NCBI RefSeq assembly: GCF_026914265.1
Contig: NC_069124.1
Location: forward strand, 11,611,723 to 11,675,722
Source of the DNA: Mya arenaria
Lineage: Eukaryota; Mollusca; Bivalvia; Myida; Myidae
Length of the DNA stretch: 64,000 nt
Direction of reading: 5' to 3'
The position numbers and the translations under genes were made by a program. The notes under the pieces are model-generated. The model was given only the letters and a program-made list of their open reading frames with translations, ran no database searches and was not told the DNA's origin. Below are positions 44,301 through 50,300 of this stretch, one piece after another. Each line of letters opens with the position of its first letter. The first letter of the stretch is position 1.

Positions 44301-47300
44301 ATTGGTTTGGAGTATCTGGTGAATGTAATATTTTGTGTACTGAAACGCAAATTTTCTCTGTTTATTCATTAATTATTTGTGTATTAGTGTGTCCTGTGTT
44401 GTGAAAAGATTAATACACAAGCCAGTTTGAGCAGAAACATACATTAAATTGAATTATTTCTTTTCTAAAGAGGAAAAATTCTGGTACATGTTTTCCAAGA
44501 CGAATTTCGGGGATTGAAAAGGTTATATTGCTTTCTCCTTGACATGCAGGAAGAAGACAAAAAGTCAGAGAAGAAGAAGGCCAAGGTGAAGAGCATTGAC
44601 CTTCCTGTGGAGGCGATGGTGGCTTCATACAGTAAAGAAGCTATCAATCTACTGGTAGAGCGGGAGGTATGTGAAGAGTTATTGAGTTTTGTCCATTTTC
44701 TAAGGGGCTAATGTAATGTTGGAAGGGAAATTGTTATACAGGCTCTAGAACTGCTGCACAAGGAAATCATGACAATATGTTACAATGTAGGTCTGTAAAA
44801 TTTTAAACAGAATTTAAAAACTATCTGCGACAGATAGCAAGTATAATCATTGCTTGAGAGCAATTGACAGTGGTAAAATCTGATAGCAATGTGCATGTGA
44901 ATGATCTAATGCTTATGGAAAAGATTAAACAGTGGTGACAGTGGTCAGCCACATACCATAAAATAATAGAAAATTGAAATCACCAATTCTTTGTTTCAGA
45001 ACGCCATGATCATGCAGGACCGACTGGAGAAGGAGCGATGTGACGCGAAAAACGCTGTGGAGGAGTATGTGTATGATATGAGGGACAAGCTATGTGGGCC
45101 ACTTGAGACATACAGCATGGAGGAGGTATGGGCTGTACTGGGTTTCTGCCTGATTGTCGGTTCACAGCCTTGCAACTTTTTTCTCGGCCTTTTTAGCTTG
45201 TCTGTTTTAAGAAAAAAATCAGAGTTCATATGTTTTCCCTACCTTTGTGTAGTTAGTGCTGGCAGAGCTGTCCAGAAGCTTTACTTTAGATATCACTGAA
45301 AAGCTGTTGAATAATTTCACATGAAACTTAGTACACATGTTTCTAATGACTGCACATAATGTGTAGAAATCTGGCTAAAATATGTTGTTGTTTTTTTTGT
45401 TATGGCCCTTGGCCGAATGAATGAAATGGTATTGCCACGTATTTAGTATTCAATATTTCTTACAATCTGTAGCAATGCATATTTCCAAAAAATCTATTTT
45501 CACAGGATCGTGAGAACTTCAGTAAACTCCTGGGCGACACTGAGGAATGGCTTTACGATGAGGGCGAAGACCAGAACAAACAAGTCTACATTGACAAACT
45601 AGCAGAATTAAGGGTAAGTGCCAGTTGGAGTGGAGTTTACCATTGTACATTCAAGGATAAATATCCAGCCATTTTTCTGAATATAGTTTAATTTAAAAGC
45701 CAAACGGAAGGAAAATGAACATGTAGGAAGTTGTGGTTTATCTGTCAGACACTGTTAAAACCCTCAGATTAGACCTTGTAGCTCTTGAAGGATTTGTCAC
45801 TATTGTTATAATAATTATTATTATTACAAATCAATTGCAACCAGTACATGTACAGATGAAAAACACAAGTGTAGAACAGTACCAAATGATGATTCTGTTG
45901 TCAGAAAACAATGAAGATTTCTTCAGGGCAGATTCTGAAATTCAACTGTTGTTTACAGAGTCCTTAATGCAATTTAACTAAAGAATACATGCATGTATAC
46001 TCATTTAAATGATGATTCTGAACTCTGAATTAAAATGACGATCTTTCAGGGCAGATTCTGATTTTTGTATTGCAAAAACTCTTCATGGATTATTATTCAC
46101 AGAATCATTTAAGAGAAAATGATGGTTCTGGACACAAATCACTATGACAATATTTTAGGGCAGATTCAGTAGTATACATATTAAAAGTAGCAAATGTAGC
46201 AAATGATGATTCTGAATGCTGAAAATAAATAATGAGGATTTTTCAGGGCAGATTCTGATTCTTATTTGTAGATATGCATATCAAGAAAAATCATTGTGTA
46301 TGGAATCTTGAAGAATCCTTTATAAGTAAAATGATGAATTTGAACTCAGAAGTGACTGTGACAATTTTTAGCTTGAGAAATGTTGCTTAAAGCCATTAAA
46401 TAAAGTACTATTTAACAGAAATATTTCTGGTAACAGGCTTGATGCTAGTGATGATTCTGATACCTGAGATTTCTATGACGATCTTTCAGGGCAGATTCTG
46501 CCGTACTGCTATAAATTTGGTTGAAAAGTAGTTTAAACCTAATTAATTAAAATAAGTGTTTTGAGCTTTGTCATTTATTGCTGAAACCTTTTTATGCCCC
46601 CGAAGGTGGGCATATTAAAATCGCACCGTCCGTCCGTCCGTCCGGCTCTGTAACTTTCCCTTGTATGGACAGATTTTAAAATAACTTGCCACATGTGTTC
46701 CACATACCAAGACGACGTGTGGCGTGCAAGACTCGTGTCCCTACCTCAAAGGTCAAGGTCACACTTAGTGTTTATTTACAATGGAGTGCTGCATATAAGG
46801 ACATAGAGTATAGGTTGTCGTGTCCGGGCTGTAACTTTCTCTTGTATGGACAGATTTTAAAATATAACTTGCCACATGTGTACCACATACCAAGACGACG
46901 TGTTGCGTGCAAGACCCGTGTTCCTACCTCAAAGGTCAAGGTCACACTTAGTGTTTATTCACCATAGAGTGCTGCATATAAGGACATAGAGTATAGGTTG
47001 TCGTGTCCGGGCTGTTACTTTCTCTTGTATGGACAGATTTTAAAATTACTTGCCCCATGTGTTCCACATACCAAGACGACGTGTCGCGTGCAAGACCCGT
47101 GTCCCTACCTCAAAGGTTAAGGTCACACTTAGTGTTTATTCACAGTGGAGTGCTGCATACAAGGACATAGAGTATAGGTTGTCGTGTCCGGGCTGTAACT
47201 TTCCCTTGTAAGGACAGATTTTAAAATAACTTGCTACATGTGTTCCACATACGAAGACGACGTGTCCTGTGCAAGACCCATGTCCCTACCTCTAAGGTGA

Positions 47301-50300
47301 AAGATACACTAAGTGTTTATTCACAAGGGAATTCTGAATATAAGGACATAACAGTGTAGGTTGTCAAGTATGGGTAATATTTTTTTATGTTCAGAGGAAA
47401 TTTAAAATAACTTGCCATATGTATTTGACACATAAAGGCAAGATCAACTTTTCATGTACTGACCTTGTTCGTAGGTCAATGTCACATTCGGGGGCATTCG
47501 TCACATACTGTGACAGCTCTTGTTAATCATAAAACAAACAAGGTTTCCGTGGTCTCACTACAACAAACTGATATTTGTAAGTGTTTAGTACATGAATAGT
47601 TTAACGATGTCTTTTATTTGTCTTAAAATCAATTTCTTGTCATGTACATTTTCAAAGCAGGTAGTGTCTAGTTCATTTGCATATTGCTCAAGTTTTATTG
47701 AAAATAAACCCAAAAGGTATTTAGTCAATTGATGCAAGTGATGATTTCTGAAATCTGAGGTCACTTTGACGATCTTTCAGGGCAGATTCTGATAATCACT
47801 TTGTACATTTATGTCAAAATTGTTGAAAAAAGTGATGGCTCAAGGCCTTTCATTTCATTGTCGACAGCTAACAAGTGATGATTCTGATGTCTGAGATCAT
47901 AATGACGATCCTTCAGGGCAGATTCTGATGTTTATTGTGTTGTATGTTCTTTGTATACTCATTTCTCTTTTGACTCATTATATACAACATTGTTTGCATT
48001 TGAATGTTTGTAAACATCATGGTCTGTATTGAGATGCTTATATGTTACATTATCGGCATTTTGATGCATATATCCATCTTTGTCTGCAATTGATTCTTGT
48101 ACACTATATAGATACTGTCTGCATTTCGAGGCTTACATCTTCACTTGCTACTGATATGTTTCAAAATGTAATGTTGCTGTAGTAAGGTAATAGGATATTC
48201 TAAATTCTACAAATATGTATATCTTCAGTTAAGATCAAGATTAATTCTAAAGGATATGCTACCTGCCTATCTACTTTTTTGTATACGGTATATGATTACT
48301 GATAAGTGATGATTTTGAATTCTTAAATGTTGGCTGAAGATCGGATACTGAAAGTGTTTAAGTTAACAGGCATAAGTTCATAAGTTTAGAACTGTCAATA
48401 CTTTGTCTATTTTGCAACATGATAACAGTCCCAGCTACTAAACTGCCGGGGCTCCCTTGTCTATGCACATCAACACATGATGATTCTGATATCGGAGATA
48501 ATTTGACGAGTCTTCAGGGCAGATTCTGATGTTTACAGTATAAGATAATCATACCTCTCATTAATCCATCTACTAAGTCTTATTGAAGTTCCACATTGGA
48601 AGTCAAATGCAATGTAACATTCTTACCTCAGGCTTTATTCAAGTTAAGTGCTATTTGAATTGTACTTTTTCAGTATATAAAACAGAAAGCTAGCTTTCAC
48701 TGATAGCATACAATCAAGTTACATGTAAAAGCAAGATGTAACTTTACCAAATTTAAGGTCATATTGAGCCAACTACTTAACAAGTGATGATTCTGATGTC
48801 TGAGATCATAATGACGATCCTTCAGGGCAGATTCTGATGTTTACTTTCATGTATTCAAAACTTCTGCATAGTTTTATTTTGGCATGGACTTGCTCTAAGT
48901 TAAGTTTGTATTTTATATGTCTGTCACACAGATGCCTTTGATTCTATTGATGGCCTTTTTGATATCATTGAGTTCAAAAGTAAATTCTTGGACTTTGTTT
49001 GCATGTTCATAAACAAATGTATATTAATAAACATCAATATCTACAAGTGATGATTCTGATGTCTGATATCAAAGTGACGATCATTCAGGGCAGATTCTGA
49101 TGTTTATTTGCATATTAAAAACTTCTGCTTTGTTTTACTTTGGCATGAACTTGCTCTTAGTAAAGCTTGTAATTTACTTGTCTGACACAGGTACCTTCCA
49201 TTCTCTTGATAGCCATCTTGAAATCAGTGATGAGTTGGACAGTAAAAGTTTTGGACTTCGTTTGCATGTACATATACAAATGTATATTATTAAATACCAG
49301 CAACTTTACAGGTGATGATTCTGATATCTGAGATCAATGTGACGATCCTTCAGGGCAGATTCTGATGTACTCATTTTAATCTACATTTATATCTTCTGTT
49401 AACAAATACCCATATCATTTATCACAATCCCTTTGATCATTATTACAGAAAATTGGAGATCCAATCCAGAGCCGGTACCGGGAATCCATGGAGAGACCCG
49501 ATGCGTTCAACAGTTTGGGACACCAGTTACAGCTTGTGAGAAAATTCCTTGATGCTGTTGCAGCTAAGGATGAGAAATTCAGTCACTTGGAGAAAGAAGA
49601 CATTGAAAAAGTAACAAAATGCTTAAAAGAGAAGCAAGAATGGTTTGATAAACAATTGAATGCTCAGAACAAGTTGAAGAAACATGAAAATCCTGCAGTG
49701 TTAGCTTCACAGATTAGGCAAACTGAACAGGTATGAGGTCTTCATGGTTGTTTAATATTTGTCTGTTAATAATGATTAATTGTTTGTGAATATTCTTGAA
49801 TATGTATTTGCCAAGGTTTCTTTCATTCCAGATATCATCTCAGTTGATGATGATTGTTATACGATGAGATAAATTTTTAATGATTACTGGTAGTTTGTCT
49901 GTATTTTGAAGGTCAAAAGGTAATGTATTGTCATAGTGCTGAGGTATTTGGAAGCTGCCGAGTTCTCAAAAGGTTCCATGTACTTTCTTTTAACTTTGTA
50001 CATCTGTGACCAAGCCTAACATGTGAATTAAGACTAATAAAGCAGGTTGAAATAATTCCCCCCCAAGGGTTATGTCCCTTTGCTAATGATAATTGTATGT
50101 TTGTCTTCACCAGAGTTTGATGTCAACCTGTAATCCAGTCATCAACAAACCAAAACCAAAGCCTAAAGAGGAACCACCTAAGGACGACAAAAAAGACGCA
50201 GCCAAGGACGCTAAGACAGACGAGCAGGGAAACAAGACAGCCTCCCCTAACAAGAATGCCAACCCCGCTGGTGATGCCAAGGCCGAACAGGCTAACGGCC

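What the first reader, a model, noticed from the sequence alone, without database searches (positions are those of the whole stretch)
45882..49370. Array of about a dozen C/D-box snoRNA-like units in one intron of the Hsp110 gene
Seen: at least nine units of about 60 bases with box C (R)TGATGA, mostly C' and D', box D CTGA, and a shared guide (T)TCAGGGCAGATT before box D, plus several decayed copies, all on the sense strand of intron 13 (45614-49448). Known: animal C/D snoRNAs are usually intronic with one per intron, and vertebrate HSPA8 introns host U14. A same-guide multicopy cluster in one intron of an Hsp110 gene is unusual. Inference: a locus amplifying one methylation guide, possibly coupled to heat-shock transcription.
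Basis: partly seen in the sequence, partly recalled or inferred. Interest (0 to 1): 0.88.

Follow-up and report, generated by a model that had tools for sequence, protein, structure and literature searches.

The report
Repeated snoRNA array in Hsp110 intron
One intron of an animal heat-shock chaperone gene carries about ten copies of what looks like a single small RNA that guides a chemical mark on the ribosome, the same kind of guide as mammalian SNORD90, which could tie ribosome marking to the stress response.

Summary
Intron 45614-49448 of an Hsp110-type gene carries 13 copies of one ~60-66-nt unit, sense strand, nowhere else in the 64 kb. Ten keep box C and an identical guide (nine also box D CTGA); three are decayed. 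Flanks are unrelated apart from one 263-bp duplication; 31 of 54 unit columns are invariant against 0 of 20 flank columns. Guide plus box D, AGGGCAGATT-CTGA, is identical to part of mouse Snord90, as printed in a primer (PMC12924715). SNORD90 directs 18S-Um354 (PMC9941101), and the units' predicted target is the equivalent base. A heat-shock element lies about 190 bases before the start codon. Best reading: an intron-encoded, multicopy SNORD90-like box C/D snoRNA array. Against: no Rfam match at threshold, rRNA pairing no better than shuffled guides, terminal stem not significant, no expression data, no related species. Same-intron clusters are known in rice and Drosophila, so this is a new variant, not a new kind.

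The parts
45614..49448 (+). host intron of an Hsp110-type gene
   Evidence: gtaagt...ttattacag; flanking exons match SSE1/Hsp110
45886..45938 (+). unit 1, box C to box D; D' reads CAGA, C' TGAAGA
   Evidence: 57.6 bits
46009..46061 (+). unit 2, box C to box D
   Evidence: 67.8 bits
46117..46178 (+). decayed unit 3: box C ATGATGG, box D CAGT
   Evidence: 32.8 bits
46203..46258 (+). unit 4, box C to box D; C' TGAGGA
   Evidence: 64.6 bits
46329..46369 (+). decayed unit 5: box C present, guide lost
   Evidence: 17.6 bits
46448..46501 (+). unit 6, guide intact but box D mutated to CTGC
   Evidence: 67.5 bits
47738..47792 (+). unit 7, box C to box D
   Evidence: 69.9 bits
47875..47928 (+). unit 8, box C to box D; 66 nt (47869-47934) identical to unit 11
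   Evidence: 79 bits
48302..48328 (+). decayed unit 9: box C half only
   Evidence: 13 bits
48477..48529 (+). unit 10, box C to box D; D' reads CGGA
   Evidence: 67.8 bits
48784..48837 (+). unit 11, box C to box D
   Evidence: 80 bits
49047..49100 (+). unit 12, box C to box D
   Evidence: 77.1 bits
49312..49365 (+). unit 13, box C to box D; with a 4-nt stem it ends 79 nt before the 3' splice site
   Evidence: 76.4 bits
48780..49368 (+). local 263-bp tandem duplication carrying units 11-13 and the two spacers between them
26154..26181 (.). heat-shock element in the host promoter; core TTCTAGAAATTTCTTGAT at 26164-26181
26373..26479 (+). first coding exon of the host gene ([10 protein letters not shown]...); end read by eye at gtaagt

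Best explanation
The intron encodes a multicopy array of one box C/D snoRNA that works like vertebrate SNORD90. The Hsp110 pre-mRNA is transcribed and spliced. The units fold their C/D (and C'/D') motifs, bind the core C/D proteins and are trimmed to RNAs of about 60-66 nt. The 10 nt before box D then pair with the small-subunit rRNA and direct fibrillarin to 2'-O-methylate the U equivalent to human 18S-U354. The array grew by local tandem duplication and by replacement or copying of whole units (gene conversion or an RNA-level copy), with birth and death of copies. Shown: the units, boxes, shared guide, boundaries, host gene and promoter heat-shock element. Inferred: expression, processing, protein binding, target and heat response.
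For: Boxes C, C', D', D and C-to-D length fit the class. Weak Rfam matches in the intron are to C/D snoRNA families in 15 of 16 rows at E up to 10. Conservation is limited to the unit: 31 of 54 unit columns are invariant against 0 of 20 flank columns, with an invariant run of 16 over guide plus box D that 7 of 20,000 permutations reach. Over 45 unit pairs, units are 73-100% identical; flanks stay below the 99% level of shuffles (0.597) in all but two flank comparisons, both inside the tandem duplication. Guide plus box D AGGGCAGATTCTGA is identical to mouse Snord90 in the primer printed in PMC12924715 (passages), and SNORD90 is listed for 18S-Um354 in PMC9941101 (passages). The fifth base before box D pairs with position 306 of a yeast-type 18S. 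The last unit ends 79 nt before the 3' splice site, close to the mammalian optimum of about 70-80 nt (recalled). A heat-shock element lies about 190 nt upstream of the ATG, with a TATA-like stretch just downstream of it.
Against: There is no Rfam match at gathering score in the window, and SNORD90 is not among the 16 weak rows (whether Rfam holds SNORD90 was not checked). The guide pairs with 18S by only 8 contiguous Watson-Crick pairs (positions 3-10 from box D), plus a G-U in animals if the recalled G is right; 69 of 120 shuffled guides find a stretch as good in the rRNA tested, which lacks all but about the first 400 bases of the large subunit. One other 18S stretch scores higher (17 against 16, at 1097) but through many G-U pairs and without covering the fifth base. 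Positions 11-13 (TTC), conserved in 10 of 10 units, do not pair at the 18S site. A terminal stem beside the boxes is present in 5 of 10 units and is not significant (1558 of 5000 swaps, 161 of 1000 flank shuffles at least as good; 61 of 500). In the tandem duplication the units are 93% and the spacers 81% identical, p = 0.06 per pair. Three-unit heat-shock motifs with up to one mismatch are not enriched in the window (26 against a mean of 24). Trimming from the intron ends alone would release only the outermost copies (inference). Um354 is not conserved in Xenopus (PMC8797249, passages). No expression data and no related species were available.
Confidence: 0.7

Rival explanations
1. The units are real box C/D snoRNAs but their main target is not 18S U354; the whole conserved TTCAGGGCAGATT guides another RNA (28S, snRNA, tRNA or mRNA), or the snoRNA is an orphan.
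For: TTC at positions 11-13 is conserved in 10 of 10 units though it does not pair with the 18S site; the pairing score is matched by 69 of 120 shuffles; most of the large-subunit rRNA was masked in the rDNA available.
Against: The 10-nt guide plus box D equals that of Snord90, whose published target is this site. Among stretches that cover the fifth base, the 18S U306 site scores best in 18S, 5.8S and the first ~400 bases of the large subunit; one stretch not covering it scores 17 against 16.
Confidence: 0.17
2. A decaying local repeat: one ancestral snoRNA multiplied by duplication, and most copies are now unexpressed pseudogenes kept alike by recent origin and conversion.
For: Three of 13 copies are clearly decayed and a fourth has a mutated box D; units 11-13 come from a 263-bp duplication; units 8 and 11 are identical over 66 nt, including linker bases under no obvious constraint.
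Against: Spacers have diverged to background while box C, guide and (in 9 of 10) box D stay unchanged; variation sits mostly in the linker between D' and C'.
Confidence: 0.1
3. The array acts mainly as one long RNA: after splicing, the snoRNP-capped intron persists as a multi-snoRNA lncRNA that sequesters proteins or regulates Hsp110 splicing, rather than supplying single snoRNAs.
For: Two snoRNAs in one intron can give snoRNA-ended lncRNAs (PMC11028025, passages seen); here nine units with intact boxes C and D share one intron.
Against: No RNA data; conservation is confined to units, and guide plus box D is the longest invariant run.
Confidence: 0.04

Closest known systems
SNORD90 (box C/D snoRNA, 18S-Um354)
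   Same: AGGGCAGATT followed by box D CTGA is identical to mouse Snord90 as printed in PMC12924715; same predicted methylated base
   Different: Upstream of the shared 10 nt mouse has AT and the units have TTC, so pairing is shorter; many copies in one Hsp110 intron; mammalian SNORD90 lies in another gene (RC3H2, recalled, not found); the rest of SNORD90 could not be compared
Intronic snoRNA gene clusters of rice and Drosophila
   Same: Several snoRNA genes in one intron; existence stated in PMC2780460; a rice cluster in an hsp70 host is recalled
   Different: Those clusters mostly hold different snoRNAs or a few isoforms (recalled; the original papers were not held); here one guide is repeated in about ten copies in an animal Hsp110 gene
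U14 (SNORD14) in HSPA8 introns
   Different: One U14 per intron, different guide and function (recalled)
SNORD115/SNORD116 and SNORD113/114 tandem arrays
   Same: Locally amplified C/D families with gain and loss of copies (PMC11028025, passages)
   Different: Copies lie in repeated introns of non-coding hosts and the snoRNAs are orphans (same passages)

Membership tests
Box C/D snoRNA | Box C RUGAUGA near the 5' end and box D CUGA near the 3' end | tested here: met
   Box C RTGATGA in 12 of 13 copies (10 of 10 in the aligned set, by choice); box D CTGA in 9 of those 10
Box C/D snoRNA | Internal C' and D' boxes | tested here: met
   C' TGACGA in 8 of 10, D' CTGA in 8 of 10, the other two of each differ by one base
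Box C/D snoRNA | Terminal stem bringing C and D together | tested here: inconclusive
   3-4 pairs beside the boxes in 5 of 10 units; 1558 of 5000 swaps at least as good; 70% of 40 cells paired, 61 of 500 shuffles as high
Box C/D snoRNA | Guide of about 10 nt or more complementary to rRNA upstream of box D or D' | tested here: inconclusive
   8 Watson-Crick pairs to a yeast-type 18S; 69 of 120 shuffles equal it; most of the large subunit not available
Box C/D snoRNA | Stable RNA bound by fibrillarin, NOP56, NOP58 and 15.5K | not testable with these tools
   no RNA data
SNORD90 | Guide plus box D AGGGCAGATTCTGA | tested here: met
   identical in 9 of 10 units; the tenth differs in the last base of box D; the reference is a printed primer, not the full RNA
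SNORD90 | Targets the U equivalent to human 18S U354 | tested here: inconclusive
   predicted by the +5 rule on a yeast-type 18S; no methylation data, no 18S of this organism
SNORD90 | Similarity to the rest of the SNORD90 RNA | not tested
   full SNORD90 sequence not obtained; no SNORD90 row in the Rfam search at E up to 10, and whether Rfam holds SNORD90 was not checked

The most novel reading that the evidence does not exclude
The array is a stress-driven dosage device: heat-shock factor turns on Hsp110 and with it about nine copies of one methylation guide, so the ribosome's 18S U354-equivalent, a substoichiometric and cell-type-variable site in human cells, is marked in proportion to stress. 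This would couple protein folding stress to ribosome composition through a chaperone intron.
Probability: 0.17. Interest if true: 0.82.

Novelty: new variant of a known kind. Interest (0 to 1): 0.6.

Why it matters
[quoted passage not shown] What sets its level appears open. An animal that carries about ten copies of the matching guide inside a chaperone intron, with a heat-shock element upstream of the gene, offers a natural test of whether guide dosage and stress set the level of a variable ribosome mark. It also asks how an animal cell frees many snoRNAs from one intron when trimming goes inward from the ends.

Tried and rejected
Rfam at gathering score: 0 matches from 4227 families in the window. 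At E up to 10 in the intron, 16 weak rows; the best were sR23, an archaeal family by recall (E 0.016), and SNORD96 (E 1.6). All 16 lie far below their families' gathering scores, so I took them as class resemblance only.

Comparison with relatives: no genome is held for the window, the 17-base core has 0 matches in viral contigs, and the cap for metagenome scans was 0, so none was tried.

Terminal and external stems: cognate flanks pair no better than swapped flanks (1558 of 5000 at least as good) or shuffled flanks (161 of 1000); pair counts not above shuffles. I do not claim a stem for all units.

D' guide: the stretch between box C and D' is about 9 nt and its last three bases vary. Some frames score higher on rRNA (18 at SSU 1786; 18 at SSU 112 for a D'-like frame), but these run into box C itself or miss the fifth base, so I did not trust them. 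Other C/D candidates in the window at 25696-25791 and 35275-35348 (also 35275-35320) have box C, box D and a short stem, but no C'/D' that I trust. Their guides find rRNA stretches of score 15-19 that cover the fifth base, a range that shuffled guides also reach; about 0.5 such candidates per strand are expected by chance, at most 2 in 30 simulations.

SINE or mobile element: no copy outside the intron within the 64 kb, so it is not a repeat common in this window; the rest of the genome could not be searched.

Print searches: snoRNA with oyster (25 of 105 listed), the 13-mer GGGCAGATTCTGA (2 papers), SNORD90/Um354, same-intron clusters (one found 0), SNORD90 with GGGCAGA (1 paper), snoRNA with HSPA4/Hsp110 (4 papers), snoRNA with mollus, box C D and intron, U14/hsc70 (15 of 18 listed). 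I saw no report of this array in these listings; most of the papers listed were not opened. The other paper with the 13-mer holds an IL-1alpha mutagenesis primer, a chance match.
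Full report
What is there. The intron 45614-49448 of a gene on the + strand holds 13 copies of one short unit. Ten keep box C RTGATGA and an identical 13-nt guide TTCAGGGCAGATT; nine of those ten end in box D CTGA and the tenth (46448) in CTGC. D' is CTGA in 8 of 10 and C' is TGACGA in 8 of 10. C-to-D length is 53-56 nt. Three copies (46117-46178, 46329-46369, 48302-48328) are decayed. A sequence-only model built from the ten finds exactly 13 places in the 64 kb at E up to 10, all in this intron and all on the + strand.

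Is it more than chance? GGGCAGATT occurs 11 times in the window, all here; on the + strand RTGATGA is 3.4 per kb in the intron and 0.25 per kb elsewhere. The units are homologous copies, so the question is what keeps them. Of 54 unit columns 31 are invariant, and the longest invariant run, 16 columns, covers guide and box D; 7 of 20,000 column permutations reach it. None of 20 flanking columns is invariant. Over 45 unit pairs, unit identity is 73-100%; flank identity stays near the shuffled mean of 0.50 (99% level 0.60), except 0.79 in two comparisons within units 11-13. Over the 42 pairs outside that duplication, position-by-position identity is raised for 3 nt before box C and about 6 nt after box D and is then mostly at background (mean 0.28), with isolated higher positions at +9 (0.62), +17 (0.55) and -10 (0.50). 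So conservation ends about where a mature C/D snoRNA would end.

How the array grew. Units 11-13 lie in a 263-bp tandem duplication whose spacers are still 81% identical at ungapped positions, against 93% for the units; the difference is suggestive only (Fisher p = 0.06 for each of three pairs). Units 8 and 11 are identical over exactly 66 nt (TAACAA...TGTTTA) in unrelated flanks. This suggests a unit-sized copy event, by gene conversion or through RNA; strong selection on every base is less likely, and which mechanism it was is not shown. The 181-bp repeat at 46640-47365 lies between units 6 and 7.

What it is. From memory I had guessed the 18S site and SNORD90 before finding a sequence (search, note). 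The letters AGGGCAGATT-CTGA just before and including box D are the same as in mouse Snord90: a primer in PMC12924715 reads ATAGGGCAGATTCTGAGGTG (passages seen). A text search for the 13-mer had returned two papers of 5.39 million; the other is a chance match. SNORD90 is listed for 18S-Um354 in PMC9941101 (passages) and PMC12724518 (passages). To test the site I fetched eukaryotic rDNA that sits in bacterial genome records. In L008, where 17 of 17 recalled yeast methylation sites carry the right base, the +5 base of the guide falls on U306.

Limits of the target claim. The pairing is 8 Watson-Crick pairs. Shuffled guides reach the same score in 69 of 120 trials on 18S, 5.8S and the start of the large subunit; the rest of the large subunit in L008 reads N. 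One 18S stretch scores 17 against 16 but does not cover the fifth base. Pairing is therefore no evidence by itself; the weight rests on identity with Snord90 and agreement with its published site. The conserved TTC further upstream does not pair at this site. The organism's own 18S was not available.

Host and regulation. The joined exons on both sides match Hsp110: best yeast SSE1, E 4.8e-06, over a stretch that spans the junction; 4 of 10 ORFs scanned match Pfam HSP70, in order along the gene. The first coding exon starts at ATG 26373. At 26164-26181 lies TTCTAGAAATTTCTTGAT, three perfect and one near-perfect heat-shock units, followed by a TATA-like stretch near 26195. Perfect three-unit arrays number 3 in the window against a simulated mean of 1.08 (largest of 60: 3); four-unit arrays with at most one mismatch number 3 against 0.48 (largest 2). 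The two others of each kind lie away from the promoter, and three-unit motifs with one mismatch allowed are not enriched (26 against a mean of 24). The motif alone is not proof, but its place just upstream of a chaperone gene is apt. Heat response of this gene was not tested.

Processing. With a 4-nt stem the last unit ends 79 nt before the 3' splice site, close to the mammalian optimum (recalled); that this distance matters for processing is stated in PMC2780460 (passages). Inner units cannot be freed by trimming from the intron ends alone if the outer units block it; two snoRNAs in one intron can yield snoRNA-ended lncRNAs (PMC11028025, passages). Endonuclease cleavage or a long multi-snoRNP RNA are both open.

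Against. No Rfam family reaches its threshold, no SNORD90 row at E up to 10, terminal stems are clear in only 5 of 10 units and not significant, Um354 is not conserved in Xenopus (PMC8797249, passages), and no RNA or related species could be consulted.

Verdict. A multicopy SNORD90-like box C/D snoRNA array in one Hsp110 intron: a new variant of a known kind. Clusters within one intron are known in rice and Drosophila (PMC2780460); about ten copies of one rRNA guide in an animal chaperone intron with a heat-shock element upstream is not something I saw in the searches named under Tried and rejected.

Noticed in passing
window 30323-31024 +: ORF with a hAT transposase C-terminal dimerisation region (Pfam PF05699, E 5.8e-06), apparently a transposon remnant; it lies between the first coding exon and the HSP70-matching ORFs of the Hsp110 gene.
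   Followed up: partly
window 23755-24741; 40402-41760; 46640-47365: Three tandem arrays with periods 51, 146 and 181 bp; just before the 181-bp array in the host intron the sequence reads ATGCCCCCGAAGGTGGGCATATT...CCGTCCGTCCGTCCG and looks like the edge of an inserted repeat.
   Followed up: no
window 49783-49800: A second heat-shock-element-like array shortly downstream of the array intron (TTTGTGAATATTCTTGAA).
   Followed up: no
units in 45882-49370: GATTCTGA occurs right after the start of box C in most units and again at the end of the guide with box D, so units are bracketed by an 8-bp direct repeat; the TTCTG after box C is invariant in 10 of 10 aligned units with no role known to me.
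   Followed up: no
L001-L008: Eight contigs filed under bacteria (Blastococcus, Brenneria, Planomonospora and five MAGs) carry eukaryotic 18S rDNA, L002 also group I introns: contamination of bacterial genome records.
   Followed up: partly
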